Source: a virus
Virus record (IMG/VR): IMGVR_UViG_3300002460_000033
Location: 1-52,114 of that record
DNA length: 52,114 nt
Strand: one strand, 5' to 3'
Part shown: positions 11,404 through 30,754 of the stretch, one piece after another
How the letters are laid out: the number at the start of each line of letters is the position of its first letter
Position numbering within the stretch: the first letter of the stretch is position 1
The notes under the pieces: generated by a model
What the model saw: only the letters and a program-made list of their open reading frames with translations
What the model was told of the DNA's origin: nothing
Database searches by the model: none
Translations under genes and position numbers: made by a program

Positions 11404-11404
11404 T

Positions 11405-11553: not shown

Positions 11554-11627
11554 TGGAGCGGAATGCGAGAATCGAACTCGCCACTATTCGTTGGCAACGA
11601 ATCGTACTGCCAATGTACTAATCCCGC
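11554..11627 (-). tRNA. tRNA-Gly(GCC)
   Basis: Acceptor GCGGGAT/ATTCCGC, loop TTGCCAA in ATTCG/CGAAT, T-loop TTCGATT, U73 and CCA encoded. Confidence 0.9.
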
Positions 11628-11971: not shown

Positions 11972-12017
11972 ATCAACAATTATACCACGGTTTTGTTATA
12001 AAGTCAACTAATCCCGC

Positions 12018-12509
12018 TTAATCAAACCATTTATAATATTCAAATTTCTCTTTCTCTTTTATTATAAGCAACGGTAAACCAATTTGCAAGCGGAACCAAT
12101 TCATAAAAATTCTGCCTGTCCTACCGTTTCCGTCAATAAAAGGGTGAATTCCTTCATACTGAACATGAAAACCTTGACTCAAATGTTCCCCTTCCTTCTC
12201 TTTCCACTTCTTTTTAAGTGCCTCATTAACTCTCTTTATCCATTCTCCAACTAATTCTTCAACCACAAACCAAGGTTTTGCTTTATGACCCCCGATGTAA
12301 ACGTCTTGCTTTCTAAATTTACCTCTTTCATTTGCTAAGAGTGGTCGGTTCTTCATCAAAATTTGGTGTGTCTTTAAAATAACATAGAAATTCATTTTAG
12401 GTTGTTTTTCTACGTACTCCCAAGCATAAAACGCCTGTAAAAGACTGTCCGCGCTCCACTCATTTTCAATCGCGTTACTCTCCTTGAGAAATTCTAAAAT
12501 CTCATTCAT
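12018..12509 (-). CDS. fic: Fic-domain protein (AMP- or phosphotransferase)
   Basis: 163 residues. The Fic motif HPFIDGNGRTGR is intact (catalytic His, anion-binding GNGR), so it should transfer AMP or a related group to protein hydroxyls. Near the N-terminus SNAIEN matches the inhibitory S-x-x-x-E-N helix motif, so it probably restrains itself. The ATG overlaps the encoded CCA of tRNA-Lys (CCATG), so the message begins at the tRNA end. Target unknown; may act on host translation or a defence factor. Confidence 0.9.
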   Translation of the reverse strand: MNEILEFLKESNAIENEWSADSLLQAFYAWEYVEKQPKMNFYVILKTHQILMKNRPLLANERGKFRKQDVYIGGHKAKPWFVVEELVGEWIKRVNEALKKKWKEKEGEHLSQGFHVQYEGIHPFIDGNGRTGRIFMNWFRLQIGLPLLIIKEKEKFEYYKWFD

Positions 12510-12585
12510 GGTGAGTCTCCTGAGACTCGAACTCAGATACTCCTGCTTAAAAGGCAGGCGCTACGGCCTGTTTAGCTAGAGACCC
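12509..12585 (-). tRNA. tRNA-Lys(TTT)
   Basis: Acceptor GGGTCTC/GAGACTC, loop CTTTTAA in CCTGC/GCAGG, T-loop TTCGAGT, A73 and CCA encoded. The CCA overlaps the fic start codon. Confidence 0.92.
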
Positions 12586-12748
12586 TTTCACAACTTTCCC
12601 AAAAATGTTTTAATTGGGAAATTATATTATAAAGATAAGTACCGCGTTCAGGTTCTTTTAACGCCTTCTTTACCCAATTTACTAATTCCCGATTATAAGA
12701 GTCAGATTCTTCTTTAGAAAGAGCCCTCATATAATTTGCCTGATTCAT
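12572..12748 (-). CDS. Small protein between tRNAs
   Basis: 58 residues, helical and charged (RALSKEESDSYNRELVNWVK). Ends 14 bases inside tRNA-Lys. Starts two bases after tRNA-Phe's CCA, with no ribosome binding site, so expression is uncertain. Confidence 0.4.
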   Translation of the reverse strand: MNQANYMRALSKEESDSYNRELVNWVKKALKEPERGTYLYNIISQLKHFWESCERVSS

Positions 12749-12749
12749 A

Positions 12750-12825
12750 TGGTGCCAACTGAACGAATCGAACGTTCCTGTTCCGCTCTTCAGGCGGACG
12801 CATAAACCATTGTTGCTAAATTGGC
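12750..12825 (-). tRNA. tRNA-Phe(GAA)
   Basis: Acceptor GCCAATT/AGTTGGC, loop CTGAAGA in TCCGC/GCGGA, T-loop TTCGATT, A73 and CCA encoded. Confidence 0.92.
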
Positions 12826-12928
12826 ATAGGAAGGGTTGATAGATACCGATTCAGAGTCACACTGACCTTAAAACTATGCTGTCTGGCGGAAACGCCGCCA
12901 CTTTCGTTTTTTAATTTCCCCTTCTCAG
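12826..12928 (-). other. Gene-free tRNA spacer with hairpin
   Basis: About 100 bases between tRNA-Phe and tRNA-Asp hold a GGCGG/CCGCC hairpin, then ACAGCATAG and ATCAAC words. Ends GAAGGG/CCCTTC could close a fold. No gene or tRNA can be built. Confidence 0.35.
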
Positions 12929-13000
12929 CGCTCCGTAGCGGTTACGCTCCGCTTATTTCGTTCGTGACAGGAACGCGTCTTACTAGTCGACCAACGAAGC
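12929..13000 (-). tRNA. tRNA-Asp(GTC) with altered elbow
   Basis: Acceptor GCTTCGT/ACGGAGC, loop CTGTCAC in CGTTC/GAACG, G73. The T-arm AGCGG/CCGCT is intact but its loop is AGCGTAA instead of TTCRANY, and the D-loop has TAGTAA with no GG pair. Directly follows the CCA of tRNA-Gln. Confidence 0.85.
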
Positions 13001-13074
13001 TGGTTACCCTAAATGGGGTTGAACCATTATTTTTAGTTTCAGAAACTAACGTCCTACCATTAGACGACTGGGTA
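13001..13074 (-). tRNA. tRNA-Gln(CTG)
   Basis: Acceptor TACCCAG/TAGGGTA (one A-A mismatch), loop TTCTGAA in TTAGT/ACTAA, T-loop TTCAACC, CCA encoded. Confidence 0.9.
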
Positions 13075-13109
13075 ATTTGGGAGCCCTTAAACTCCCAACA
13101 CTTCACTTG

Positions 13110-13385
13110 TTAGAAATTTCTAGGCGCTCTTGGTCTTGCAACATTAACAATAATTTTTCGTCCCTCTATATCCTTTCCATTAGCTTCTAATGCTTTTTGA
13201 GCATCTTCTTCTTTAGCAAACGTAACAAATCCAAAACCCTTTGACCTTCCAGACATTCTATCATTAATCACAATCGCCTCAACAATCTCACCGTAAGAAT
13301 CAAAAAATGCTTTCAAGGAGTCATTATTAACTGACCACGGGAGACCTCCCACAAACAATTTGTTTTTATCCATCTTTGTACTCAC
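13110..13385 (-). CDS. RNA-recognition-motif (RRM) protein
   Basis: 91 residues, a single RRM: RNP2 is LFVGGL (residues 10-15), RNP1 is KGFGFVTF near residue 50, with the aromatic residues that stack on RNA bases intact. Binds single-stranded RNA. Single-RRM proteins are known in cyanobacteria and other bacteria but are unusual in phages. Its place in the tRNA array points to tRNA or tmRNA handling, an inference from position only. Confidence 0.9.
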   Translation of the reverse strand: MSTKMDKNKLFVGGLPWSVNNDSLKAFFDSYGEIVEAIVINDRMSGRSKGFGFVTFAKEEDAQKALEANGKDIEGRKIIVNVARPRAPRNF

Positions 13386-13414
13386 CCCTATTCATAGTTT
13401 ATTGGTTAAACTAG

Positions 13415-13485
13415 TTCCGAGAGATGGGGTCGAACCACCGTTCAGACTTTCAAAGAGTCGAAGCCTACCATTAGCTGACCTCGGA
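13415..13485 (-). tRNA. tRNA-Gln(TTG)
   Basis: Acceptor TCCGAGG/TCTCGGA, loop CTTTGAA, T-loop TTCGACC. CCA not encoded. Confidence 0.9.
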
Positions 13486-13490
13486 ATATG

Positions 13491-13562
13491 TTTTCTGAGG
13501 AGAAATCGAATCTCCATCTCAGACTTAGGAAATCTGTGCTCTGTCCATTGAACTATCAGAAA
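13491..13562 (-). tRNA. tRNA-Arg(CCT)
   Basis: Acceptor TTTCTGA/TCAGAAA, loop TTCCTAA in CAGAT/GTCTG, T-loop TTCGATT. CCA not encoded. Confidence 0.9.
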
Positions 13563-13566
13563 TATG

Positions 13567-13638
13567 TGCCCCCAGAATGAATCGAACATTCAGCTAACCC
13601 TTAGAAGGGGTTCATTTTATCCGTTGAACTATGTGGGC
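13567..13638 (-). tRNA. tRNA-Arg(TCT)
   Basis: Acceptor GCCCACA/TGGGGGC, loop CTTCTAA in AACCC/GGGTT, T-loop TTCGATT. One A-G mismatch in the acceptor. Confidence 0.9.
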
Positions 13639-13898
13639 TATTCTTTTGGAACTTTATAATATTTCTTTTTTACTAATTTTCTAATATCATCCAATTCATC
13701 TTTTGTAACATCTTTAAAATCATACTCACTGCGAAATTTATCCCATTCTTTTGTTCTTTTACAAAAAAATCTTATTTCCTCTATATTATACTGTTCGGTG
13801 TCAATAAATACTTCTATTCTACCACCCGCCCAATCTTCATATTTAGGATTAAAAATACCTTCTTCAATAAATGATAAAAAATATTCTCCTTTTTTCAT
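13638..13898 (-). CDS. Unknown protein between tRNAs
   Basis: 86 residues, acidic N-terminal part, C-terminal lysine-rich helix. Squeezed between tRNA-Glu and tRNA-Arg with one base shared. No family recognised. Confidence 0.55.
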   Translation of the reverse strand: MKKGEYFLSFIEEGIFNPKYEDWAGGRIEVFIDTEQYNIEEIRFFCKRTKEWDKFRSEYDFKDVTKDELDDIRKLVKKKYYKVPKE

Positions 13899-13899
13899 G

Positions 13900-13970
13900 T
13901 GTTGCTTAAGGGTTCCGCCCCCTTCTTTGTAGAATGAGAATCTACTTTCCTACTACTAGAAGAAAGCAAC
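13900..13970 (-). tRNA. tRNA-Glu(CTC) with altered elbow
   Basis: Acceptor GTTGCTT/AAGCAAC, loop TTCTCAT in GTAGA/TCTAC. T-arm AAGGG/CCCTT carries loop GGCGGAA, not TTC; D-loop TAGTAGTAG lacks a canonical GG. Confidence 0.8.
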
Positions 13971-14052
13971 TGGGGTGTTCGACGGGATTCGAACCCGCGT
14001 GAAATGACCACTTTCACAGAGTGGCGACTTAAGCCTCTTGTCAACGAACACC
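13971..14052 (-). tRNA. tRNA-His(GTG)
   Basis: Acceptor GTGTTCG/CGAACAC with an extra G-1 facing C73 (the histidine identity pair), loop CTGTGAA in CCACT/AGTGG, T-loop TTCGAAT, CCA encoded. Confidence 0.93.
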
Positions 14053-14056
14053 AGAG

Positions 14057-14127
14057 TGCTCTAACGCGGTAACGCTCCGCGACTAAAAGGCTGAAAACCT
14101 ATTGTTCTGCTACTAAACTATTAGAGC
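14057..14127 (-). tRNA. tRNA-Glu(TTC) with altered elbow
   Basis: Acceptor GCTCTAA/TTAGAGC, loop TTTTCAG, T-arm CGCGG/CCGCG with loop AGCGTTA. D-loop TAGTAGCAG lacks GG. One T-T mismatch in the anticodon stem. Confidence 0.8.
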
Positions 14128-14213
14128 TGGTAGGCCCGAAAGGACTTGAACCTTCAATGCTTTTTAGGCACTTCCTTTTAAGAGAAGCGTGTTTTCCATT
14201 TCACCACAGGCCC
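14128..14213 (-). tRNA. tRNA-Leu(TAA)
   Basis: Class II tRNA with long variable arm, loop CTTAAAA in CTTCT/GGAAG, T-loop TTCAAGT, CCA encoded. Confidence 0.92.
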
Positions 14214-14217
14214 TTAG

Positions 14218-14292
14218 TAGCGACTAGATGATTCGAACATCTAAAATTCTGTTTCTAAAACAGACCTGTCTAGCCAGTTGCAGCAAGTCGCC
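14218..14292 (-). tRNA. tRNA-Leu(TAG)-like with short variable arm
   Basis: Acceptor GGCGACT/AGTCGCT, loop TTTAGAA in TCTGT/ACAGA, T-loop TTCGAAT. The D-arm is leucine-like, but the variable region is only four bases, so this is class I. The anticodon reads CTA. Confidence 0.8.
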
Positions 14293-14296
14293 AAAG

Positions 14297-14378
14297 TGCC
14301 GCTTAGAAGATTTGAACTCCTACGCTTTTTGGGCAAACGATTTTGAATCGTTCATGTCTACCATTCCACCAAAGCGGC
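14297..14378 (-). tRNA. tRNA-Leu(CAA)
   Basis: Class II, acceptor GCCGCTT/AAGCGGC, loop TTCAAAA in AACGA/TCGTT, long variable arm, T-loop TTCAAAT. Confidence 0.9.
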
Positions 14379-14464
14379 TGGTGCCGTTTAAGTGACTTGA
14401 ACACTTACGTTCTCTCGAACACTGCGCTCTTGACGCAGCTTGTCTACCATTCCAACAAAACGGC
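14379..14464 (-). tRNA. tRNA-Leu(AAG) with C33
   Basis: Class II, acceptor GCCGTTT/AAACGGC, stem CTGCG/CGCAG, loop TCAAGAG: position 33 is C instead of the near-universal U. Long variable arm, T-loop TTCAAGT, CCA encoded. Confidence 0.82.
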
Positions 14465-14552
14465 TATTTTTCCGACTATAATTTTTCTCTTGAGAGTGAC
14501 AATTAGAACAAATAAAACGTAAATTTTCTTTTCGATTATCAAACGGGTTTTC
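14465..14552 (-). pseudogene. HNH endonuclease remnant
   Basis: The minus strand encodes NRKENLRFICSNCHSQ, the typical C-terminal part of an HNH nuclease, with a TAG directly upstream and no N-terminal half. A decayed homing endonuclease between two tRNAs. Confidence 0.6.
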
Positions 14553-14559
14553 CTATTTG

Positions 14560-14633
14560 TCCTATTCTAACGAATTGAACGTTACTATTGGTATTTTACA
14601 GATACCCGCTCACAGCCAGCGAGCTCGAATAGG
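14560..14633 (-). tRNA. tRNA-Tyr(GTA), C1-G72, short variable arm
   Basis: Acceptor CCTATTC/GAATAGG, loop CTGTAAA in GGTAT/ATACC, five-base variable region, T-loop TTCAATT, A73. Most bacterial tRNA-Tyr have G1-C72 and a long variable arm; this has the archaeal/eukaryotic-type pair and a class I arm. Position 8 is G. Confidence 0.85.
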
Positions 14634-14638
14634 ATATG

Positions 14639-14711
14639 TGCCCTCTCGAGGCTATGCTCCTCGCGCCTTTCGGATGTAAGCCGATTGCTCTTCTGAATGA
14701 GCTAAGTGGGC
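14639..14711 (-). tRNA. tRNA-Val(TAC) with altered elbow
   Basis: Acceptor GCCCACT/AGAGGGC, loop CTTACAT, T-arm CGAGG/CCTCG with loop AGCATAG. D-loop ATTCAGAA lacks GG. Confidence 0.8.
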
Positions 14712-14719
14712 AAGCCGAC

Positions 14720-14861
14720 GGTTTTTTACGAGCTTATCCGCCGAAGCTGGTTTTTAGCGAGTAGTTCTCTCGATAGGTTTTTAGCGAGCTTTTGTGCCTA
14801 GCAGCTCAGTTGGGATTATAGAGTTTTTAAGACCAAGCAACTCTGTTGGTTTTTAAAGAGG
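14720..14861. repeat. Five short direct repeats GGTTTTTAGCGAG
   Basis: Copies at 14720 (one T longer), 14749, 14776, 14821 and 14848, the last two diverged (GAGTTTTTAAGACC, GGTTTTTAAAGAGG). Start spacing is 29, 27, 45 and 27. They fill a gene-free spacer between tRNA-Val and tRNA-Arg(GCG). A TAGCAGCTCAGTTGGGATTA stretch in the wide gap looks like a broken plus-strand D-arm. Confidence 0.6.
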
Positions 14862-14889
14862 TTTTAACCATACCTCTAGGGTGCATCCT

Positions 14890-14964
14890 TGGTTTGTCGC
14901 CGAAGAATTGAACTTCGAGTTGAACTTTCGCAAAGTTCCGTTTTATCCGTTGAACTAGCGACAA
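14890..14964 (-). tRNA. tRNA-Arg(GCG)
   Basis: Acceptor TTGTCGC/GCGACAA, loop TTGCGAA in GAACT/AGTTC, T-loop TTCAATT, CCA encoded. GCG is an unusual choice; bacteria normally use ACG for these codons. Confidence 0.88.
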
Positions 14965-14968
14965 TTTG

Positions 14969-15042
14969 TACTCTCAGAAGAGCATGATTCTTCAATCTCG
15001 TGGTTCGAAGCCACGCACTTTATCCAATTAAGCTATGAGAGT
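14969..15042 (-). tRNA. tRNA-Arg(TCG)
   Basis: Acceptor ACTCTCA/TGAGAGT, loop CTTCGAA in CGTGG/CCACG. T-loop ATCATGC differs from TTCRANY, but the D-loop keeps GG. Confidence 0.85.
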
Positions 15043-15046
15043 AATG

Positions 15047-15119
15047 TGAGCTTAGAACGACTCGAACGTTCAACAAGTTGCTTAAGGGGCAACTACTCTA
15101 CCTGTTGAGTTATAAGCCC
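15047..15119 (-). tRNA. tRNA-Lys(CTT) with C33
   Basis: Acceptor GGGCTTA/TAAGCTC, loop CCCTTAA in GTTGC/GCAAC, so position 33 is C. T-loop TTCGAGT. Confidence 0.82.
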
Positions 15120-15145
15120 TTACACCCACCTCTTCAAAAGTGTGT

Positions 15146-15223
15146 TGGTGGACTTGAGAGGATTCGAACCTCCAAAATCTCCTCATTGCAAATGAGGTGC
15201 GATGGCCGTTACGCTACAAGCCC
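15146..15223 (-). tRNA. tRNA-Ala(TGC)
   Basis: Acceptor GGGCTTG/CAAGTCC, loop TTTGCAA in CCTCA/TGAGG, T-loop TTCGAAT, CCA encoded. The third acceptor pair G3-C70 replaces the usual G3-U70; a G-U lies one pair further in. Confidence 0.85.
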
Positions 15224-15601
15224 TGGTGGAAATGGCGGGTACCGCCCCCGCGTGCATAAAATTTAATTTAATATTATTATTACAAGTTTTTTTTGAATCT
15301 TTACTCAAAAGCACTCATTTTATAGTAAATGAGAAAGCGGCCTTTTCGGGCTATCCATCTTATCAGGTTTTCGCCTTTCCCCTAAGGATAAGAAACTTAT
15401 GAGGAAGACGCAATCTCAATTGGCAAACGCAAAAGCGCCAGATTGAATACCCATGTAACCCGCGTGCTTGGCTATAAAAGCCTCGTCGCCTGATGTAAGG
15501 GCACTACCATTACTGTGTTTAGCAGTTAAAGTTTTGTTTAACGTCCCATAGGACGACTTGATAAAATTAAATAAAGATTATGTCGATTCTATTTCATTCC
15601 C
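15224..15601 (-). ncRNA. ssrA: Transfer-messenger RNA
   Basis: Rescues stalled ribosomes and tags their peptides. The tRNA-like part joins GGGAATG at the 5' end with CATTTCC, A73 and CCA at the 3' end. Its T-loop is GGCGGTA and the D-region reads CGACATAA where CGACGGGA is usual: the same altered elbow as the Asp, Glu and Val tRNAs. From the resume codon GCT (15523-15521) one frame runs 35 codons to TGA (15418-15416), starting AKHSNG and ending GAFAFAN. It heads the tRNA operon, directly behind the promoter. Confidence 0.85.
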
Positions 15602-18573: not shown

Positions 18574-20568
18574 ATGTCTACCGACTTTCCCGAAACTATC
18601 CCTGATATTGTAAAAATAGCTTTTGACGAGGCTAATAAATACTTTCCGACCCCCTTGCAACTTTTTCAATTTACAGATAAATATTCACGCTATGATTATG
18701 AGAAAAACCGCCGAGAAACTTGGGTTGAGACTGTTCAAAGAACTATTATTTTTTTAAAAAAACTTTCTAAAAATAAACTTTCTCCCGAAATCTACGATAA
18801 AATTCAGGATTTTATTCTCAATATGAAATCTGCTCCTTCAATGAGACTTCTTGCAATGGCTGGGTCGGCCGCTGAACGAAATAATATAGTAATTTATAAT
18901 TGTTCTTATCTTCCAATTGACTCAATAGACGCATTAGTTGAGGAACTTTTAATTGCAATGGCGGGGTGTGGCGTTGGATATTCGGTTGAAAGACAATATG
19001 TTGATAAACTACCGACAGTTAAACTTCAGACTAAGCGCTTATTACCGACTTTCACTATTCCAGACTCAACTGAGGGGTGGGCTGAGGCTTTTAAAAAAGG
19101 ACTAACCGCTTGGTTTAATGGGGATGATATTCAATTTGATTATTCCACAATAAGAAGAGCGGGAACACCACTTAAAATTAAGGGTGGAAGAGCTTCTGGA
19201 CCTGGGCCACTTCGAAGTCTTTTGGATTTTACAAAAAAAGTTATTTTAGAACAACAAGGAAAAAAATTAAAACCATTAAATGTTCACGATATAGCCTGTA
19301 AAGTTGGAGAAAGTATCGTCGCGGGTGGAGTTAGACGAACTGCACTTATTGCTTTTTTTGATATAGATGATGATGAAATGAGAAACTGTAAAAATGGTGA
19401 TTTAAGGGGAAATCAGCAAAGATGGATGGCTAATAATTCGGCGGTTTGGAATGAAGAATTACCTCAAGATAAGGTTCTAACCCAGATGTATGATATGTTC
19501 AAAGGTCAGCGGGGGGAGCCTGGAATTTTCAGTAGATTTAATGCTAATAATATTAAACCCAGAAGACGTGAAGAAGCTGTTTATGGGAGTAATCCTTGCG
19601 GGGAGATAAATCTTCGTCCTTATGAATTTTGTAATTTAAGCGTTGCAATAGCAAGACCAAATGACACCCTCGAAACCTTAGCTGAAAAAGTAAGAGTTGC
19701 TTCAATTATAGGAACAATTCAGGCAATGGGAACTTATTTCCCAGGGCTTCGACCTATTTGGAAGAAAAACTGCGAAGAGGAGAGGCTTTTAGGGGTAGAT
19801 ATTAATGGGTGGGTAGATACACCACTTCTTGCTCCTAAAAATCCCGAACTTGGAAAAAATTTACAATATTTTAAAAAAGTTGCGGTTGAAACAAATAAGA
19901 AATATGCTGAAATGTTAGGAATAAATCAGGCAGCGGCAGTTACTTGTGTTAAACCTTCAGGTAATTCCGCCCTCCTTTTCAATTGTTCATCTGGAATTCA
20001 TCCTCGCCATTATAGGTATTATGTGAGAAATGTAAGAGTCCAAAATGAATCTCCCTTAAAAAAATTATTTGAAAAGGCAGGTGTTCCAATGAGTCCAGAA
20101 AATGGTCAAAATAGGGATACAGCTAATACGTGGGTTATCCATTTTCCAATCAGATCACCAGAATACACAATAACAAAAAGAGAAATGTCGGCGGTTGAAC
20201 AGTGTGAATATTGGTTAGCCGCTAAATTAAACTGGACGGAACATAATCCTTCAGTAACCATAACTTATACCCCAGCTGAAATAATAGATTTAATCAAGTG
20301 GGTAAATGACCATAAAAAATACATCGGCGGGATGTCTTTCCTTCCCCTGGATGAGGCTCGATACGAACAAATGCCTTATGAACCAATAACAAGTGAAGAA
20401 TATGAGAAAAAACTGAAAGAATTTCCTGTAATTGATTACAGCGAACTTTATTTACTTGAAAAAACAGATTATACAAATCTTTCTCAGGAACTAGCTTGCA
20501 CGAGTGGATCTTGCTCTTTAGATGAGCATTTAGCCAAATCAACCGCCCAAAAACTTCAACTGATATAA
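18574..20568 (+). CDS. nrdJ: Class II (B12-dependent) ribonucleotide reductase
   Basis: 664 residues; reduces ribonucleoside triphosphates to deoxy forms with adenosylcobalamin, feeding phage DNA synthesis. Monomeric Lactobacillus-type: NPCGEI puts the thiyl-radical Cys at 342 with its partner Glu at 344, and ELACTSGSCS near the end provides the redox pair C642/C647 that reduces the active site. Also GSAAERNN and GCGVGYSVE near the first active-site cysteine. No intein. Works without oxygen, so the host supplies cobalamin. Confidence 0.95.
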   Translation: MSTDFPETIPDIVKIAFDEANKYFPTPLQLFQFTDKYSRYDYEKNRRETWVETVQRTIIFLKKLSKNKLSPEIYDKIQDFILNMKSAPSMRLLAMAGSAAERNNIVIYNCSYLPIDSIDALVEELLIAMAGCGVGYSVERQYVDKLPTVKLQTKRLLPTFTIPDSTEGWAEAFKKGLTAWFNGDDIQFDYSTIRRAGTPLKIKGGRASGPGPLRSLLDFTKKVILEQQGKKLKPLNVHDIACKVGESIVAGGVRRTALIAFFDIDDDEMRNCKNGDLRGNQQRWMANNSAVWNEELPQDKVLTQMYDMFKGQRGEPGIFSRFNANNIKPRRREEAVYGSNPCGEINLRPYEFCNLSVAIARPNDTLETLAEKVRVASIIGTIQAMGTYFPGLRPIWKKNCEEERLLGVDINGWVDTPLLAPKNPELGKNLQYFKKVAVETNKKYAEMLGINQAAAVTCVKPSGNSALLFNCSSGIHPRHYRYYVRNVRVQNESPLKKLFEKAGVPMSPENGQNRDTANTWVIHFPIRSPEYTITKREMSAVEQCEYWLAAKLNWTEHNPSVTITYTPAEIIDLIKWVNDHKKYIGGMSFLPLDEARYEQMPYEPITSEEYEKKLKEFPVIDYSELYLLEKTDYTNLSQELACTSGSCSLDEHLAKSTAQKLQLI

Positions 20569-20573
20569 TACTC

Positions 20574-20602
20574 TTGACATCATAAATTCATTATGATATA
20601 AT
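20574..20602 (+). promoter_or_regulatory. Promoter, leaderless gene
   Basis: TTGACA (20574-20579), 17 bases, TATAAT (20597-20602); the next ATG is seven bases on, at the expected transcription start. Confidence 0.85.
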
Positions 20603-20609
20603 ATAAGCT

Positions 20610-20858
20610 ATGGTAGACGTAGAACCAACTGGAGAAATAATTGTTACCTTAAACTCAAGCGAAAAACATTATGCTTATGATAGGTTAAGTGTTACATACG
20701 AATCAACAGATAAAGAAATATTAGATGCAGTTTCACCAGTATTACTTGAAGAAGAAGGTTTTGATGTAGAAAATGCAGATGAAACCTTTACCGTTAAAAG
20801 AGTAGAAGATTCAAAAAATATTTATATTTTTCCCAAAAGCGTTGCAGGGCTTTCCTAA
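20610..20858 (+). CDS. Small protein, possible beta-grasp (ubiquitin-like) fold
   Basis: 82 residues: two strands (EIIVTLNSS, RLSVTYES), a helix (KEILDAVSPVLLEEEGFD) and later strands ending NIYIFPKSVAG. This beta-beta-alpha-beta order and a terminal PKSVAG-type tail recall MoaD/ThiS-like proteins, but there is no final GG. Transcribed alone from its own leaderless promoter. Fold proposed from pattern only. Confidence 0.5.
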   Translation: MVDVEPTGEIIVTLNSSEKHYAYDRLSVTYESTDKEILDAVSPVLLEEEGFDVENADETFTVKRVEDSKNIYIFPKSVAGLS

Positions 20859-20867
20859 ATATACCGC

Positions 20868-20896
20868 TTGACAAAATTAAATCATTTTGATATAAT
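20868..20896 (+). promoter_or_regulatory. Promoter of the structured-RNA and permuted-tRNA block
   Basis: TTGACA (20868-20873), 17 bases, TATAAT (20891-20896). No other strong promoter or terminator is seen before 22.5 kb, so RNA D, the five units and possibly the HNH gene share one transcript. Confidence 0.85.
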
Positions 20897-20901
20897 ATAA
20901 A

Positions 20902-21100
20902 AGCACTTTAAATTATCTTTTAAGTTCTATATGCCTGAACAATTTCCTTAGTAGGGAAATAAGGGACACCCTACCACTCTGTGGTAAGAGACTGGGTGGT
21001 TGCCAAAGTACATATACAAATTACTACTACTTTGCTTATGAGGGTTTACCCATGGTAAAAATTTACCCTCATTGTAGAACTTAACAGATAATCGCACTTT
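20902..21100 (+). ncRNA. Structured RNA D, AGCAC-flanked
   Basis: Closing stem in two parts: ATTATCT/AGATAAT and AAGTTCTA/TAGAACTT with a TTT/AAC internal loop. Inside: TTTCC/GGGAAA hairpin, CACCC-TACCAC with GTGGTA-GGGTG hairpin, AAAGTA/TACTTT, and ATGAGGGT/ACCCTCAT enclosing TTTACC/GGTAAA. Flanks AGCACTTTAAA and CGCACTTTTAAA match those of RNA A at 2.9 kb. It lies 1.4 kb upstream of the Ro60 gene, so a Y-like RNA is a candidate identity. Confidence 0.65.
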
Positions 21101-21108
21101 TAAATAAT

Positions 21109-21258
21109 GCCGAAGTGGTGTAATGGAAAACACACAACTCTTTTTAAGTTGCAAAACTCATAATAAATAACACTTACATGACTAGTCATGTCGCAGTTAC
21201 TTATTTACAAGCATCATCTCATAAATGATAAATCTAGGTTCGATTCCTAGCTTCGGCA
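21109..21258 (+). tRNA. tRNA-Met(CAT) with about 78-base insertion
   Basis: 5' part: acceptor GCCGAAG, D-arm GTGT/ACAC. 3' part: anticodon arm ATCAT/ATGAT with loop CTCATAA, T-arm CTAGG/CCTAG with TTCGATT, acceptor CTTCGGC. Between position 26 and the anticodon stem lies 21135-21212. The insertion has a decoy anticodon-like hairpin (CAACT/AGTTG) and then the shared core: helix AATAAATAAC/GTTACTTATT, internal loop ACTT/CGCA, hairpin ACATGAC/GTCATGT, ending TACAAGC. Confidence 0.7.
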
Positions 21259-21262
21259 CTAA

Positions 21263-21402
21263 GGTTATTCCGCAGACATTTATTTACAAGCAAATCGGGA
21301 TCTTATAGAGCTGGTTCAACTCCAGCATCCCCAGCCATGGGGATTAGTTCAACGTCAGAACATAAGAATTTTACTTAAACAATAAATTTCACTTGAATAA
21401 CC
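21263..21402 (+). tRNA. Circularly permuted tRNA-Pro(CGG)
   Basis: The 3' half comes first: CGGGA, TCTTA (anticodon stem), T-arm GCTGG/CCAGC with TTCAACT, acceptor ATCCCCA, G73, CCA (21335-21337). The 5' half follows with no gap: acceptor TGGGGAT, TA, D-arm GTTC/GAAC, A26, TAAGA. TAAGA pairs with TCTTA, and joining gives loop ATCGGGA, a proline anticodon with G37. Outside lie the core parts: GGTTATTC, CGCA and helix at the left; helix, ACTT and GAATAACC at the right. Only proline tRNA found. The exact joint is ambiguous by two bases. Confidence 0.75.
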
Positions 21403-21406
21403 ATTT

Positions 21407-21545
21407 GCCAGAGTAGCTCAAAGGTAGAGCATACTGTTCTAAAGTAGTTTCGCCTTGCGTAATTTATTACGCCGATTGAAGTTACTCACAAGCAATTTTC
21501 ACTGCAAATGAAAAGGCGTCAGTTCGATTCTGACCTCTGGCTCCA
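21407..21545 (+). tRNA. tRNA-Cys(GCA) with about 65-base insertion
   Basis: Acceptor GCCAGAG/CTCTGGC, D-arm GCTC/GAGC with GG, anticodon arm TTTCA/TGAAA with loop CTGCAAA, T-arm GTCAG/CTGAC with TTCGATT, U73 (Cys identity) and CCA encoded. Inserted at 21432-21495: TACT/AGTA decoy hairpin, helix AGTAGTTTC/GAAGTTACT, internal loop GCCTT/CGATT, hairpin GCGTAAT/ATTACGC, ending CACAAGC. A second, uninterrupted tRNA-Cys lies at 37451. Confidence 0.72.
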
Positions 21546-21549
21546 CGTA

Positions 21550-21709
21550 CTGTTCCTTAGATAATGATTTACAAGCTTAGCTCATTTGGTAGAGCAATTC
21601 TTTGATAAAGAATCGGTAGCGAGTTCAACTCTCGCAGCATAGTGAACACCCAGCACTCAAACTTGGGTGGCCGTCGAAAGACAAACAATAATCATTATCA
21701 CTTGAACAG
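21550..21709 (+). ncRNA. Permuted tRNA-Ile(GAT)-like RNA
   Basis: Flanks CTGTTC and GAACAG pair, as do GATAATGATT and AATCATTATC, with internal loop CTTA/ACTT and TACAAGC at the left joint. Inside: D-arm GCTC/GAGC with GG, anticodon arm ATTCT/AGAAT with loop TTGATAA, T-arm GCGAG/CTCGC with TTCAACT. Only three acceptor pairs (GCT/AGC) exist and no CCA. Then CACCCA/TGGGTG and GTC-GAAA-GAC hairpins. Joining would give a circle with a tRNA-like domain: a tRNA mimic or Y-like RNA rather than a working tRNA. Confidence 0.55.
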
Positions 21710-21734
21710 AACTCTTTAAGAATTAAATTTCGAA

Positions 21735-21868
21735 GTATCTCTTCGGAAACTATTTACAAGCATATTTGGGGTAACCCGAATCTCTCCCCCCAGATGTCTC
21801 TAAGGCCCGAGCAACTTTGGAGGCGACTTGGGGGAGTGTTCTTGAAATAATAGTCCCCACTTAGATAC
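21735..21868 (+). ncRNA. Permuted unit around a non-tRNA RNA
   Basis: GTATCT (21735) pairs with AGATAC (21863) and ACTATT with AATAGT; the internal loop has ACTT on the right, and the left joint ends TACAAGC like the other units. The enclosed RNA has GGGGT/ACCC and a long CTCCCCC/GGGGGAG stem but no tRNA arms. Ends 20 bases before the HNH gene. Confidence 0.5.
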
Positions 21869-21888
21869 CTCGTAATTTAGTTCTTATT

Positions 21889-22479
21889 ATGGACACTATC
21901 AGTCTTGGCGACATAAATCTTCTTGAGATTGGAAGCGAAATTCAAATCGCTGGAACCATTTGGAGCGGCAAAGGTTTAAACTTCGTAACTTTAATTCCTG
22001 GAAAAGAACCAATTGAAAAATTAAAATTCATGCCCCTTAATCTTGAGGAATGGGAAAAACTTCTTCGACAAGCAGACCTTCTCGAAACTGAAATGTTTCA
22101 AAAAGACCCAACTGGTAAATTAGTAAAAGTAATTTTTAGAAAAACTCAAAGACAAATTGATGCCTATACTATGTGGGCCACGTTTAAAAGAGATCAATAC
22201 CGATGCCAGTATTGTTGGAGAGAAGGAATTCCTTTAACGATAGATCATGTTGATATTTGGGAAGAGGGAGGAGCTACTATCCTTGATAATTTATTATCAA
22301 CTTGTAGGTCTTGTAATAAAGACAGGGGTAAAATTAAATATGAAAGTTGGATAAATTCTAATGTTTATAAAAATAAATCTAAAAATCTTCCAGAAAATAT
22401 TAAACAAAAAAATATAGATAGAATAAAAGATTTATCCAGACTTGAATCTTTACGTGTTTATCACGTAAGAAGTAGATAA
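21889..22479 (+). CDS. HNH endonuclease beside the permuted units
   Basis: 196 residues. Residues 1-85 are a beta-rich domain not typical of HNH genes. Then CQYCWREG, TIDHVDIWEEGG, NLLSTCRSCNKDRG: complete zinc-stabilised HNH fold. Basic tail. It may be the mobility factor of the RNA elements just upstream, or an ordinary homing gene. No ribosome binding site is obvious before ATG 21889. Confidence 0.88.
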   Translation: MDTISLGDINLLEIGSEIQIAGTIWSGKGLNFVTLIPGKEPIEKLKFMPLNLEEWEKLLRQADLLETEMFQKDPTGKLVKVIFRKTQRQIDAYTMWATFKRDQYRCQYCWREGIPLTIDHVDIWEEGGATILDNLLSTCRSCNKDRGKIKYESWINSNVYKNKSKNLPENIKQKNIDRIKDLSRLESLRVYHVRSR

Positions 22480-22536: not shown

Positions 22537-24108
22537 ATGACAGTCTTGGCAAAAGAAAGTTTACCTTTCCTATCATCTGAGGATCGACTAAGCGCTTATT
22601 CAATAATTCTTGAAGGTTGTTCTCACATCTACTCAAAAAATAAACTCCAACAAGACAAGGCTCTAAAAATTCTTGAACTTTTAATCCCATTAACTAAAAA
22701 TGACCCTTACTTTCTAGCTCATTTTACATCCTACGCATTAACTAAATCAAAATCAAAAGACCTTCACGTCTTCTTAACTTATGTTTCGGCTCTCTCTTCA
22801 GCTGACGGCACACCATTCTCTCATGGCTCAAAATATAAGAAACCAAATTTAAGATATATTTCAGCCGCCGCCCTTCACAGATTAGACCCAAAACTTGCGA
22901 ATCGAGTGATGGAACTGGCAAGCATGAAATTTAGCATTACAGGGTACTTAAATGAAGCCCGACACTTTCCAACGACACTTCGTACCTCTTTTGAGAAATA
23001 CCTCAAATATAGGGAGTTAAACCTCGAAATTATGAAGGGAATAAAGAAAGCTGGATTAGGGAATACAATTAAGATACTCTATAAGGCATTACATAAAGGA
23101 CCAACTGAAGATGTTGCTAAAATACTCCGCTGGCAGCAAAAGAATAAAAAAATTAAATTTGATAAACCTCTTTTTGATTTTAAGGGAATGACTGATGAAG
23201 ATATTGCTAGAAAAATTCAAAAAGAAAAACTTCCAGTCTTAGGGGTTTTGGGTGCTTTACCCAGAACCGTTTCTCCAGTAATTGCGGTCGCTCTCCTTGA
23301 ACAAGCGACTGGAAATCAGACTGTTATTCTACGCAAAACATTTGAAGACGCGGGAGTTTTGAAAGATAAGGAAGTTTTCAAATTATTTGAAGAAAAGATA
23401 AAAACCGCAAAAACCGCTCTAGATAGAGTTGAAATAATATCTCAAAACGCATCAGAAGAAGTTAAAAGGGTAATGGTTTCGGCGCGATCCGATTCAAGAA
23501 AGAAAGAGATGAAAGGTCTTGGAAAAATTTATGTACATATTGACGATTCTGGATCAATGCAAGCGGCAAGAGAATTTGCAATTGAGAGGGGAGCAATTTT
23601 AGCCGAGTGTGTAAATGATCCTAAAAATAACTTTGGATGGGGTATTTTTTCAGGTCAAGGTATACCCCTAGATCTTCCTCAAGAATTTGTTAAGGATGCG
23701 TTCAAAGCTGTATTATTTGGGGTACGTGGAGGAGGATCGACTGATTGTTTTGCTTTATATCCCGAAGCGAGAAAGTTTGGAGCAAGTGTTGATATTTTTG
23801 TTTCAGACCAACAGCATACAGATGGAGATTTAGAATATAAAATAAAACACTTCCATAGTCAAAACCCAAATATTCCAAAACCAAGGGTTTGTGCAATAGT
23901 AGACTTTGGCGGTGGCCAACGTGGAACTCTTAAATTAGCTTATGAATCAAATAATATTCCAGTTGCCCTTCTTAATCCAGATAAATTAGTTGAATCGGCA
24001 TTAGTAGTTGATGCGGTAAAAGCTGTAATTCAGGGTCCAATAGTTGTGATTGATGAAATTATGAATACTGAACTTTTACGATTACCAGATTATTATTACA
24101 CCCTATAA
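22537..24108 (+). CDS. rsr: Ro60 / TROVE-domain RNA-binding protein
   Basis: 523 residues. Residues about 1-340 are the helical-repeat TROVE ring (DPYFLAHFTSYALTKSKSKD, YISAAALHRLDP) that threads RNA ends and binds Y RNAs on its outer face. Residues about 345-520 are a von Willebrand A domain with the metal site D-D-S-G-S (IDDSGSM) and GGGSTD. Bacterial Rsr works with Y RNAs and PNPase in RNA decay and rRNA maturation. Its position behind the tRNA-like RNAs suggests they are ligands (inference). Confidence 0.93.
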   Translation: MTVLAKESLPFLSSEDRLSAYSIILEGCSHIYSKNKLQQDKALKILELLIPLTKNDPYFLAHFTSYALTKSKSKDLHVFLTYVSALSSADGTPFSHGSKYKKPNLRYISAAALHRLDPKLANRVMELASMKFSITGYLNEARHFPTTLRTSFEKYLKYRELNLEIMKGIKKAGLGNTIKILYKALHKGPTEDVAKILRWQQKNKKIKFDKPLFDFKGMTDEDIARKIQKEKLPVLGVLGALPRTVSPVIAVALLEQATGNQTVILRKTFEDAGVLKDKEVFKLFEEKIKTAKTALDRVEIISQNASEEVKRVMVSARSDSRKKEMKGLGKIYVHIDDSGSMQAAREFAIERGAILAECVNDPKNNFGWGIFSGQGIPLDLPQEFVKDAFKAVLFGVRGGGSTDCFALYPEARKFGASVDIFVSDQQHTDGDLEYKIKHFHSQNPNIPKPRVCAIVDFGGGQRGTLKLAYESNNIPVALLNPDKLVESALVVDAVKAVIQGPIVVIDEIMNTELLRLPDYYYTL

Positions 24109-27591: not shown

Positions 27592-28053
27592 ATGAACCAT
27601 AAATTTAATAATGAGGTCGGAATTATTTTATCAGAGGAATGGGACCCGTTGGTATTTATTGAAGGAAACCCTGGTTCGGTTGATTTTCCATCAGAATTTA
27701 TTTTAGATGCTCATAAAAGAAGAAATGGATTTGTTCATGTTTTAATGCACACACACCCGCCAGGAATGACTGGATTAAGTTTTAGGGATGAATTGACTTT
27801 AAAAACTTTAGCGTTCACCCTATATCCTTTTCCAATCAGAATGGGAACTTTAACTTTAACTGGAAAAGAAACCTTTATTGAAACAACTTATTTAGCACTT
27901 TTAGAACCAAAAGAACTCTGGGAAAAAGGAAAAATAAGAAAGTTCAGTATTGAAAAAGAACACGTTTATGATTTTGTAGAACCGATTGGATTTTGGAGAA
28001 AAAAAGCCATTGAAATGAGCTACAAAAAGTTTGACAAAATTAGTGAATTATGA
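27592..28053 (+). CDS. JAB/JAMM metalloprotease 1 (deubiquitinase-like)
   Basis: 153 residues. JAMM zinc motif H53-x-H55-x7-S63-x2-D66 (HTHPPGMTGLSFRDE), with an upstream Glu in EEWDPLVFIEGN. Proteases of this family free the GG end of ubiquitin-like proteins or cut their conjugates. Short, a single catalytic domain. Next gene is E1-like, the classic pairing. Confidence 0.88.
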   Translation: MNHKFNNEVGIILSEEWDPLVFIEGNPGSVDFPSEFILDAHKRRNGFVHVLMHTHPPGMTGLSFRDELTLKTLAFTLYPFPIRMGTLTLTGKETFIETTYLALLEPKELWEKGKIRKFSIEKEHVYDFVEPIGFWRKKAIEMSYKKFDKISEL

Positions 28054-28058
28054 TATAA
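28031..28058 (+). promoter_or_regulatory. Internal promoter of the conjugation operon
   Basis: TTGACA (28031-28036), 16 bases, TATAAT (28053-28058), inside the JAMM gene end; serves the E1, Ubl and E2-like genes. Confidence 0.8.
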
Positions 28059-28075
28059 TATATATATCATAAGAT

Positions 28076-28744
28076 ATGAACGATAATAAGGTTTTTTCTC
28101 GCCAACTCGATTTAGTAAAACCAGATGAATTAGACTTTCCAATCTTAATAATTGGAGCTGGTGGAATAGGAAGTTGGACCACTTTAGCTCTTGCTAAAAT
28201 GGGATGTCATAATATTACGGTTGTTGATTTTGATAAAGTAGAAGATCACAATATTCCCTCTCAAATTTATACTTTTAAATACAAAGGGGAATTTAAAGTT
28301 AATGCTTTAAAAGATATAGTGAAAGAACTCACTTCAGTAGAAATAATCCCAGTCTCCCAAAAATTTCAGGATTGGTACACTCCAGATAAACAGTTTAATG
28401 CAATTATTAGTGGGGTGGATTCAGTGGAATCCCGCCGAAAAATCTGGAAGAAAATTTCAACAGATATTCCTCTTAAATTTGACGTCTACTTTGACGGAAG
28501 AATGGCTGGGGAATTTTTAAGAATTATAACTATAAGTCCGCTAAACGCTTATTCAATCAACTCCTATCAGAAAAATTTATTTGCTGATAAGCCAGTAGAC
28601 GACACTCCTTGTACCGCCCGTTCTGTAGTTTACAACACCTTCCTTTGCGGTGGTCTAATGGCAAGTTTCATTAAAAAATATGCTAAAAAAGAATTTGTAA
28701 AAGCAAACATTAATTTTGATATTACAAATACTCAAATATTATGA
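28076..28744 (+). CDS. E1-like activating enzyme 1 (ThiF family)
   Basis: 222 residues, one Rossmann adenylation domain: G27-x-G29-G-I-G32 (GAGGIGSW), acidic adenine-binding strand (VVDFDKVEDHNIPSQIY), and a candidate catalytic cysteine C179 in PCTARS. Would adenylate the C-terminal glycine of the Ubl and carry it as thioester. No CxxC zinc pairs of MoeB type. Ends in an ATGA overlap with the Ubl frame. Confidence 0.9.
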   Translation: MNDNKVFSRQLDLVKPDELDFPILIIGAGGIGSWTTLALAKMGCHNITVVDFDKVEDHNIPSQIYTFKYKGEFKVNALKDIVKELTSVEIIPVSQKFQDWYTPDKQFNAIISGVDSVESRRKIWKKISTDIPLKFDVYFDGRMAGEFLRIITISPLNAYSINSYQKNLFADKPVDDTPCTARSVVYNTFLCGGLMASFIKKYAKKEFVKANINFDITNTQIL

Positions 28745-28794
28745 ATTTGTTAAACATTTTTAATAAAAAAAAGAAGAAGGGGGGTGAAAAAGAT

Positions 28795-29040
28795 ATGGGA
28801 AAAAAGAACAAAAAGGGAGATGCTGATATAACCGTTAAGGTCTGTCGAGCTCCAGGAAAAGTAGTTGAAATAGCTCTAAACGGTGGAAGAACTGTAGACG
28901 ATGCTTTAAAAGCCGCAGGACTTGTAAAAAAAGAATCTGAAGTTATACAGGTTAATAGTGAAGAGGTGGACGACATATATTACGAATTGGAAGATGGAGA
29001 CCGAGTAGTTTTAGCTAAAAACATTCAAGGGGGTAGATAA
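28795..29040 (+). CDS. Ubiquitin-like protein ending in GGR
   Basis: 81 residues from ATG 28795, which follows AAGGGGGGTGA; an upstream in-frame ATG at 28741 is less likely. Beta-grasp pattern: ITVKVCRAPGKVVEIALNGG, helix TVDDALKAAGL, final strand DRVVLAKNIQGGR. The chain ends GG plus one Arg, so one residue must be trimmed to expose GG, a job for a JAMM protease. MoaD/ThiS size, single domain. Confidence 0.88.
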   Translation: MGKKNKKGDADITVKVCRAPGKVVEIALNGGRTVDDALKAAGLVKKESEVIQVNSEEVDDIYYELEDGDRVVLAKNIQGGR

Positions 29041-29042
29041 AC

Positions 29043-30752
29043 ATGGCTGCATGGTTTAATGGAAATATTGGGGTCCCTGAAGATAGTAGTGTTACTGTAT
29101 ATAATACGTCGGACGGGACCTATATCCATAACAAATATACTGTTGAGAATGCTATTGATTATACTATGGTAAGTAATTATATTTCCACTGAAGGATTACA
29201 ACAATTAGCCCAACAGCAAGTAATGAATGCTCCGTTGGGAAGTTTAGCTTCACCTTCTCCTTTTCAGCGAGAAGTAAAACAAATGTCTTATGGAGTAAAA
29301 CCTGAAAAGAAAGTTAAAAAGAAAAAGGTTGGAGTGTCTATTGCAATTGCTGATTTTGCCCAGGAAAAAGCAGAAAATCTGAAAGCCAAATTAAGTCTTG
29401 AAAAATTAACTCTCCAGACAAATAAAAAACTAATCGAGGATAATAAAAAAAAGATGAGAGTCATGGAAGATAAGGTTGTTAATCTTGAACAAAAATATAA
29501 TTCTTTAACTCAGGTCAAACGGTCTGAATTAGTTTCAAAATATAGAAAAATTATTACTCTTTTGAAAAAGTCTCCTGAAATTGAAAAGTTTGAGACAGAC
29601 ATTGATAAAAGAGTAATTATTACAACTAAACCACTATTTGTCCAAAAGACAACATGGGACAAGCCGCGGGAAATAGGTAGATTTCAAATTAGAATAGATT
29701 TTTCTAAGACCGAAATAAGTGGGGGAGGAGTTCAAATATTAAATATAACCCAGCGTTACCAAAGCTACGACAACCCGACCATTAATAATACGAGTCCTTG
29801 TTGGGGAAATATTGGACCCGATATAACAAATGAATTTCAAACCCAAGATTTATATGAATTAGTTTTAGATTTAATTGATTACATCAGAAGTCCTAATGAG
29901 TCTTCTGGATTTTTAGGAAAAAACGGAGATAAAACACTGGGGTGGGAGCAATTTTTTGAAGGAGCAACCAAACAACCAGAAAATTTTTCCTTTTATAAAT
30001 ATGACCAGCTACAAAAATCAAAAAATGTTAAAGGGGTGGTTGTTGGGGGTAGTACGTTGGAGTGGACATTAGATAACCCAACCGAAAGATTTGCTCAAGA
30101 ATACGGGCAATATGTGAGATTTACAAATGAAGTCGGAATGACAACAAATGTTGCGGTTAGCCCACAAGCCGCGGGAGTTTTACAAGAAGCCGTAGAACAT
30201 CGGCGTGAAATTCATAATGATGGTGAATCAAGAGATATGCACGAAGAAATGGCGCGCCGATTAAGGGAAAGAAATATTAGTGAAGATAATTATCAAGTAA
30301 TGAGGGTTTTTAGGGATTTTGGGATGACTGAGCGCGCCGCTTATTATTTTATGGGTTTGTTAAATGAAGAACCAATAAGAAGCGGGGAAGTGGTAACACG
30401 TTGTGAGGTACGAGCGTCAGGTGGACAAATTTCAGTTTTTTTTCATATAGAAAACTCACGACAGATACAAAATATGACAGTAACTACCGCACCCCAACCA
30501 GATGACCAAATAAGAGTATTACGTTATTTTGCAAATGAAAGAGATTTTAAACCAAGATTTTTAGACCGATTACGACACGCGGGAGTAATTCAATTTTTAA
30601 TGCCAAATAGATTATCGACTCACACACATCAAACAACCGAAGCGAGAGAAACATCTATTCGTGAACAAACAGTAAGACAAACAAGGGAAACGTTAGAATC
30701 ACTCAGTCTGAATAGTATAAATAACAGAATTTTACCACCTTACGAAGGATAA
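29043..30752 (+). CDS. Large protein with E2-like segment
   Basis: 569 residues. Residues about 95-170 are coiled coil (lysine/glutamate heptads). Residues about 215-290 resemble an E2 fold: strands RFQIRIDFSKTEISGGGVQIL, then NPTINNTSPCWGN with candidate catalytic Cys253, then helix DLYELVLDLIDYIRSPNES. This Cys-W-G plus helix layout fits prokaryotic E2-like proteins of JAMM/E1 operons. The last 280 residues are unassigned (MARRLRERNISEDNYQVMR). ATG two bases after the Ubl stop. Confidence 0.7.
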   Translation: MAAWFNGNIGVPEDSSVTVYNTSDGTYIHNKYTVENAIDYTMVSNYISTEGLQQLAQQQVMNAPLGSLASPSPFQREVKQMSYGVKPEKKVKKKKVGVSIAIADFAQEKAENLKAKLSLEKLTLQTNKKLIEDNKKKMRVMEDKVVNLEQKYNSLTQVKRSELVSKYRKIITLLKKSPEIEKFETDIDKRVIITTKPLFVQKTTWDKPREIGRFQIRIDFSKTEISGGGVQILNITQRYQSYDNPTINNTSPCWGNIGPDITNEFQTQDLYELVLDLIDYIRSPNESSGFLGKNGDKTLGWEQFFEGATKQPENFSFYKYDQLQKSKNVKGVVVGGSTLEWTLDNPTERFAQEYGQYVRFTNEVGMTTNVAVSPQAAGVLQEAVEHRREIHNDGESRDMHEEMARRLRERNISEDNYQVMRVFRDFGMTERAAYYFMGLLNEEPIRSGEVVTRCEVRASGGQISVFFHIENSRQIQNMTVTTAPQPDDQIRVLRYFANERDFKPRFLDRLRHAGVIQFLMPNRLSTHTHQTTEARETSIREQTVRQTRETLESLSLNSINNRILPPYEG

Positions 30753-30754
30753 AT

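What the first reader, a model, noticed from the sequence alone, without database searches (positions are those of the whole stretch)
21109..21868. Five adjacent units of one small RNA core that interrupts or turns tRNAs inside out
Each unit has two helices around an internal loop (right or 5' side CACTT/ACTT; other side CGCA, CGAT or CTTA) and a joint ending TACAAGC or CACAAGC. Helix sequences differ between units while pairing is kept (AATAAATAAC/GTTACTTATT, AATAAAT/ATTTATT, AGTAGTTTC/GAAGTTACT, AATCATTATC/GATAATGATT, AATAGT/ACTATT), which is good evidence for a real structure. Units 1 and 3 are ordinary insertions (tRNA-Met, tRNA-Cys). Units 2, 4 and 5 have the core split to the outside, so joining would make circles. 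Units are spaced 4-5 bases apart behind one promoter. At about 60-80 bases they are far too small for group I or II introns. This could be a new minimal self-splicing or ligase-dependent element.
Basis: partly seen in the sequence, partly recalled or inferred. Interest (0 to 1): 0.95.

Follow-up and report, generated by a model that had tools for sequence, protein, structure and literature searches.

The report
Phage Y-RNA-like stems grafted onto tRNAs
Next to a gene for a Ro60-like RNA-chaperone protein, this virus encodes a row of small RNAs in which one conserved, covarying stem is either inserted into a tRNA or wrapped around an inside-out tRNA; the layout matches Y RNAs (the RNA partners of Ro60) better than it matches a new self-splicing intron.

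Summary
Five copies of one core (two helices around an ACUU/CGCA-type internal loop, then YACAAGC) lie at 21109-21872. Across related phages the helices covary strongly: 13 cores, 54 compensatory cells against 17.5 expected, 0/500 shuffles. An independent set of 17 cores gives the same result. A covariance model built without the window finds both of its linear units (E=1.3e-7 and 1.2e-4). The same units occur in five other phages, including the published 595-kb phage LR756511. There they cluster beside a Ro60-like gene, and a scan of that whole record gave no other significant match.

The self-splicing reading is not supported. The core has the geometry of a Y RNA's Ro60-binding stem: helix, CGNA/ACUU loop, 9-bp helix. 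Inside-out tRNAs with a capped acceptor are the layout of bacterial YrlA Y RNAs. The neighbouring protein's predicted fold matches Ro60/Rsr. Some cores cap loops of only 16-28 nt with no tRNA, which an intron would not need.

What is new is the number of units, full tRNA modules with anticodons, stems grafted at about six different tRNA positions, and linear 'armed' tRNAs. Splicing of the linear units is not excluded.

The parts
20868..20896 (+). sigma-70 promoter TTGACA-N17-TATAAT, the only perfect one in the region, ahead of the RNA cluster
   Evidence: 12/12; no terminator-like site on the + strand of the cluster
20922..21082 (+). separate structured RNA (closing stem AAGTTCTA/TAGAACTT with several internal hairpins); a similarly organised RNA lies in the same cluster of G002 (L088:7236-7436 -)
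   Evidence: folds, z -4.05 and -4.69
21109..21258 (+). Unit 1: tRNA with the core inserted; core 21163-21212 (H1 21163-21171, ACTT 21172-21175, H2 hairpin 21176-21191, CGCA 21192-21195, H1' 21196-21204, tail TACAAGC 21206-21212)
   Evidence: (R3, built without the window, E=1.3e-7)
21263..21402 (+). Unit 2: inside-out tRNA. Leader strand GGTTATTC-CGCA-GACATTTAT-T-TACAAGC (21263-21291), 3' half 21294-21333, GCCA cap, 5' half from 21338, trailing strand ATAAATTTC-ACTT-GAATAACC (21382-21402); the stem leaves from the anticodon loop
21407..21545 (+). Unit 3: tRNA-Cys (GCA, U73, encoded CCA) with the core inserted between D and anticodon arms; core 21444-21493, tail CACAAGC
   Evidence: Cys, score 119; E=1.2e-4
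21550..21709 (+). Unit 4: leader strand CTGTTC-CTTA-GATAATGAT-T-TACAAGC (21550-21576), tRNA-Ile(GAU)-like body 21577-21642, trailing strand ATCATTATC-ACTT-GAACAG (21691-21709)
   Evidence: (tRNA, 49 bits)
21731..21872 (+). Unit 5: leader strand CGAAGTATCT-CTTC-GGAAACTAT-T-TACAAGC (21731-21761), acceptor/T-arm-like body without anticodon arm (21762-21849), trailing strand ATAGTCCCC-ACTT-AGATACC (21850-21872); similar units in G002 (f) and L235 (i)
21889..22476 (+). HNH protein found beside the units in the window, G001, G002, L235 and L238
   Evidence: (PF01844)
22537..24105 (+). Ro60/Rsr-like protein (helical-repeat plus VWA domain), the probable protein partner
   Evidence: the seven best PDB fold matches are Ro60/Rsr, E 9e-6 to 4e-4 (model pLDDT 60.5); no Pfam TROVE match

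Best explanation
The units are phage-encoded Y-RNA-like RNAs for the phage's own Ro60 homologue. The core (helix H2, CGNA/ACUU internal loop, 9-bp helix H1) is the Ro60-binding stem; the attached body is a tRNA or tRNA mimic. In units 2, 4 and 5 the RNA's own 5' and 3' ends form the Ro stem and the tRNA body is circularly permuted, with its acceptor strands joined by a linker (short in unit 2), as in bacterial YrlA. In units 1 and 3 the same stem is grafted into a tRNA as an extra arm. Ro60 would bind the stem and hold the tRNA-like body, as an effector module, as chaperoned or protected tRNA, or as a lure for tRNA-binding enzymes. No splicing is needed. Shown here: the structure, its covariation, its restriction to Ro60-like loci, the permuted tRNA layout and the Ro60-like predicted fold. 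Inferred: Ro60 binding, absence of splicing, and function.
For: Covariation in two sets with no core in common. Cognate pairing of split strands. Units lie within a few kb of a Ro60-like gene in the window, G001, G002 and L235 (one family) and in L238 and LR756511 (a diverged VWA protein; H17 matches L238's at 29%). In LR756511 (595 kb) every R1 hit at E<=1 lies beside that gene. Ro60/Rsr are the top seven fold matches. Bacterial YrlA is described as 90-150 nt, with a stem made by the 5' and 3' ends that tethers Rsr and a tRNA-like domain resembling D, T and acceptor arms (PMC8394870). An actinophage Ro gene (MZ820085) has, just upstream, inside-out tRNA modules on CGAA-containing stems, one hit by Rfam YrlA at E=0.0067. 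GNRA-type caps join acceptor strands (GAAA in L238 unit k, GCAA in LR756511 n5; read from sequence). Three LR756511 cores enclose only 16-28 nt with no tRNA.
Against: Rfam's YrlA and Y_RNA models do not match the window or LR756511, although YrlA also scored the actinophage RNA below its cut-off (28.8 against 69 bits). Model R1 does not find the actinophage Y RNAs. The loop differs in detail: CGCA, CGAT or CTTA instead of CGAA, no GC before ACUU, and YACAARC where Y RNAs and actinophage RNAs have (G)UUAUC. Linear units with sensible anticodons, Cys U73 and encoded CCA look like real tRNAs, in which an unspliced arm at position 26 or in the anticodon loop should disturb function. The Ro60 assignment rests on a medium-confidence model (pLDDT 60.5) and fold comparison, not a sequence profile. 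The human Y1 comparison is from memory. Binding was not tested.
Confidence: 0.7

Rival explanations
1. The core is a very small intron-like element: exons are joined after its removal. Linear units give mature tRNAs directly; split units give circular pre-tRNAs that RNase P opens at the acceptor, as in algae and archaea. Catalysis would be by the RNA itself or by an unknown phage or host nuclease and ligase.
For: Removing the core restores good tRNAs for several units (Cys, Phe, Tyr, Met, Ile, Lys and Arg readings score 118-126 in ARAGORN). Anticodon loops are mostly normal. Fixed spacing between loop, 9-nt strand and YACAARC. Insert positions are diverse, as for mobile introns. In LR756511 three cores may interrupt short reading frames; a spliced product is weakly DnaB-N-like (E=0.059).
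Against: Best joints vary from 0 to 20 nt before H1 and from -8 to +10 nt around the tail. Cores enclosing 16-28 nt have no exon to mature. No archaeal splicing endonuclease or RtcB in any of 8 records; RNA ligase only in LR756511 and LR756500 (several records are fragments). No BHB motif. Every occurrence lies at a Ro60-like locus, which an intron would not need.
Confidence: 0.2
2. Both: genuine tRNAs carry a Ro60-binding arm, and after Ro-assisted folding or repair the arm is cut out and the tRNA sealed, so the stem is a handle as well as an intervening sequence.
For: Explains Ro60 linkage and good anticodons together; Ro/Y RNA genes sit in RNA-repair operons with RtcB in some bacteria (PMC8394870).
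Against: No RtcB in these genomes; joints not constant; a host ligase would be needed.
Confidence: 0.1

Closest known systems
Bacterial Y RNA YrlA with Rsr (Ro60)
   Same: Stem formed by the RNA's 5' and 3' ends with a tRNA-like module (D, T and acceptor arms) on it; gene next to a Ro60 homologue
   Different: Here 3-15 units per phage (two in G001), many with full anticodon arms; the stem attaches at about six tRNA positions; some units are linear (stem inserted, acceptor ends free); the Rfam model does not match
Vertebrate Y RNAs (human Y1)
   Same: Helix, CGAA / ACUU internal loop, 9-bp helix
   Different: Human Y1 has GC before ACUU and no tRNA module; sequence recalled from memory
Ro-like genes and upstream Y-like RNAs of actinophages (e.g. 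Mycobacterium phage ScoobyDoobyDoo)
   Same: Phage Ro gene preceded by inside-out tRNA modules on CGAA-containing stems
   Different: Different loop sequences and (G)UUAUC in place of YACAARC; the Ro protein there is annotated as Ro-like, while ours is recognised only by fold
Circularly permuted tRNA genes of algae and archaea
   Same: 3' half precedes 5' half, acceptor strands joined by a short linker
   Different: Those are joined through BHB motifs by a splicing endonuclease; no BHB and no such enzyme here
Introns of Lak megaphage tRNAs
   Same: Unclassified insertions in phage tRNAs
   Different: No core, no significant R1 match, different sequences

Membership tests
Y RNA (YrlA type) | Encoded with and bound by a Ro60/Rsr protein | tested here: inconclusive
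   Neighbouring gene is Ro60-like by fold; a related or diverged VWA protein lies beside the units in all six genomes; binding not testable
Y RNA (YrlA type) | Ro-binding stem formed by the RNA's ends, with a conserved CGAA/ACUU-type internal loop | tested here: met
   Split units: covariation and cognate pairing; loop similar, not identical; linear units carry the stem internally
Y RNA (YrlA type) | tRNA-like module with D, T and acceptor arms, permuted and capped | tested here: met
   U2, g, j, k, l and n5 read from sequence; acceptor strands joined by 4-6 nt in most, longer in l
Y RNA (YrlA type) | Match to Rfam YrlA (RF02553) or Y_RNA model | tested here: not met
   No match at E<=5 in window 20500-22400 or at E<=0.5 in L246 1500-6000. 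So it is not filed as a YrlA family member, only as Y-RNA-like
BHB-type tRNA introns / permuted tRNAs | Bulge-helix-bulge motif at the joint | tested here: not met
   0 strict BHB in 8 of 9 linear units, 1 in the ninth; shuffled 0.1-0.5 per unit
BHB-type tRNA introns / permuted tRNAs | tRNA-splicing endonuclease (PF01974) in the genome | tested here: not met
   0 of 8 records; a host enzyme is not excluded
Group I / group II introns | Catalytic core recognised by Rfam; over 200 nt | tested here: not met
   No hit; core 50-56 nt
Self-splicing element | RNA is excised and exons joined | not testable with these tools
   No RNA data; joints inferred from tRNA folding are not constant
Lak phage tRNA introns | Shared sequence or structure | tested here: not met

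The most novel reading that the evidence does not exclude
The Ro-type stem is also a new, roughly 55-nt intervening element that is excised from the linear units (and joins split ones through a circle), which would be a new splicing system in bacterial viruses coupling Ro60, Y RNA architecture and tRNA maturation.
Probability: 0.22. Interest if true: 0.95.

Novelty: new variant of a known kind. Interest (0 to 1): 0.68.

Why it matters
Bacterial Y RNAs mimic tRNA, but how that mimicry arose and what it is for is open. These phages carry arrays in which the Ro-type stem is attached to recognisable tRNAs with anticodons, at many positions and in both topologies, which looks like the evolutionary route from tRNA to Y RNA laid out in one locus. 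It gives a compact experimental system (one Ro60-like protein, up to about 15 natural RNAs) and a covariance model for finding Y-RNA-like RNAs that Rfam misses. It also warns that some 'permuted' or 'intron-bearing' phage tRNAs may be Ro ligands rather than spliced tRNAs.

Tried and rejected
Group I/II introns and small ribozymes: no Rfam hit. BHB splicing: no motif, no endonuclease. RtcB-type repair: no RtcB in 8 records. Lak megaphage tRNA introns: different. Pseudoknot CTT/AAG between loop and tail: AAG becomes ATG in L235 and L238 without a matching change. Fixed splice-joint rule: six acceptor-type units lean towards a cut after the fifth tail letter (YACAA|GC), but the sums over cut positions are nearly flat; not claimed. 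Duplicated ordinary tRNAs to fix exon borders: the canonical tRNAs of these phages are not close copies. HNH and Ro-like genes in bacterial genomes: none. Five other huge phages: no units. First Ro structure model (pLDDT 45) was uninformative.

Full report
WHAT IS THERE. Written once, the core is: H1 (9 nt), NCUU, H2, loop or open ends, H2', a 4-nt loop (CGCA, CGAT, CTTA or CTTC), H1' (9 nt), one base, YACAAGC. In units 1 and 3 it is inserted in a tRNA; in units 2, 4 and 5 the two strands lie outside the tRNA-like body. A perfect sigma-70 promoter lies at 20868-20896.

HOMOLOGUES. The ribonucleotide reductase upstream led to two related phages with the same locus: G001 (L004) with two units and G002 (L005) with six recognisable cores. 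An alignment of the HNH protein added L235 and L238. The small 82-aa protein upstream (not checked in L238), the HNH gene and a VWA protein keep the same order. tblastn against named phages gave the 595-kb phage LR756511.1.

COVARIATION. On 13 cores from the window, G001 and G002, 86.5% of cells pair (shuffled 62.8), 54 cells show double changes (17.5), and the covariation score is 0.761 (0.299); 0 of 500 shuffles reach the observed values, and sliding the partners destroys the signal. The structure was read partly from these sequences, so I repeated it on 17 cores from LR756511 and L235: 86.7% paired (66.3), score 0.670 (0.272), 0/500. Some short loops were inserted by hand to join split units; only helix and conserved-loop columns carry the claim. 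Over 15 split units, leader and trailing strands pair with their own partner better than in any of 100,000 re-pairings.

MODEL TESTS. Model R1 (13 cores) finds eight units in LR756511, best E=9.4e-6 for the whole 595-kb record, all within 3 kb beside its VWA/Ro-like gene. Model R2 (LR756511 and L235 only) finds units of G002 and one of G001 (best E 2.4e-5) but not those of the window. Model R3, with no window sequence, finds unit 1 (E=1.3e-7) and unit 3 (E=1.2e-4); weaker hits are pieces of the same cluster. Five other huge phages give nothing.

FIXED GEOMETRY. In 12 of the first 13 cores exactly 9 nt plus one separate the 4-nt loop from YACAAGC (read from alignment A5). LR756511 has TACAAAC and strands of 9-11 nt (A9); L238 has TACATG. 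Insert position varies: near the acceptor (U4, h, e, n3, n13), positions 7-9 (b), D loop (L004-A, g, j), position 26 (U1, U3, n1), anticodon loop (U2), variable loop (l, n5). In LR756511 three cores (n11, n12, n14) enclose only 16-28 nt without a tRNA.

THE NEIGHBOUR. The protein at 22537-24105 has no Pfam match for its function. An AlphaFold model from five homologues (pLDDT 60.5) gives Ro60 and Rsr as the seven best PDB fold matches (E 9e-6 to 4e-4). L238 and LR756511 carry a more distant VWA protein in the same place; its Ro60 nature was not tested by fold. An actinophage record has a gene annotated Ro-like preceded by inside-out tRNA modules on CGAA stems, one of them an Rfam YrlA hit at E=0.0067. 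Virus Rctr197k has a distant Ro relative after some 30 tRNA genes, without cores.

INTERPRETATION. Read in the orientation of the split units (H2', CGNA, H1' ... H1, ACUU, H2) the core has the layout of the Ro60-binding stem of Y RNAs. A search written for the element returns exactly that stem in human Y1 (9 of 9 and 6 of 6 pairs; sequence from memory, so a lead). Bacterial YrlA is described as a stem of the RNA's 5' and 3' ends tethering Rsr, with a domain like the D, T and acceptor arms of tRNA (PMC8394870). Split units are therefore YrlA-like in architecture, including acceptors joined by short, often GNRA-type caps (GAAA, GCAA; GCCA in unit 2). Linear units are the same stem grafted into a tRNA, a form I have not found described. 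I commit to Ro60-binding Y-RNA-like RNAs (0.7).

WHY NOT A NEW INTRON. Joints that give the best tRNA are not at constant distance from the core. There is no BHB, no RtcB and no splicing endonuclease, and no intron family. Cores around 16-28 nt have nothing to mature, and the Ro60 linkage is unexplained. Still, normal anticodon loops, Cys U73 and encoded CCA in unit 3 suggest some linear units derive from working tRNAs, so splicing is kept at about 0.2. Three LR756511 cores may interrupt short reading frames; that evidence is weak.

MEMBERSHIP. Rfam YrlA and Y_RNA do not match, and Ro binding was not tested, so these are filed as Y-RNA-like, not as members of the YrlA family. Literature searches found no earlier report of such RNAs in phages, within an open-access library only.

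Noticed in passing
window 20922-21082; L088:7236-7436 (-): A 160-200 nt RNA with a closing stem and several hairpins (z -4.1 and -4.7) just before, or within, the unit cluster in two phages with little sequence in common; possibly another Ro-associated RNA.
   Followed up: partly
window 21731-21872; L088 6.38-6.51 kb (-); L235 about 2640-2790: Unit 5 and its counterparts have an acceptor-like stem ending CCA and a hairpin but no anticodon arm, and lie next to the HNH gene in all three phages.
   Followed up: partly
L246 3500-3950 (LR756511.1): Three tandem cores appear to interrupt short reading frames; a spliced product is weakly DnaB-N-like (E=0.059).
   Followed up: partly
L273 1941-2455 (MZ820085.1): Unannotated Y-RNA-like units with inside-out tRNA modules upstream of a mycobacteriophage Ro-like gene; Rfam YrlA scores one at 28.8 bits, below its cut-off.
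   Followed up: partly
window 27592-32856: Genes resembling ThiF/E1, JAB-type protease and ubiquitin-like proteins, read by eye from the translations, downstream of the Ro60-like gene.
   Followed up: no
L238 4772-5938: A TnpB-like transposon protein gene (by eye) has split the HNH gene of this phage's locus.
   Followed up: no
L101 7632-9638: A fourth relative keeps the small protein and Ro60-like gene side by side but has no units and no HNH gene there.
   Followed up: yes
window 10916-15223 and 37147-38655: A near-complete set of 33 ordinary tRNAs plus a tmRNA (15224-15601), nearly all on the opposite strand; no ordinary tRNA-Pro was found in the window or the rest of the record.
   Followed up: no
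L247 725-4554 (KX853510.1): Virus Rctr197k has a distant Ro relative directly after an array of about 30 tRNA genes.
   Followed up: no
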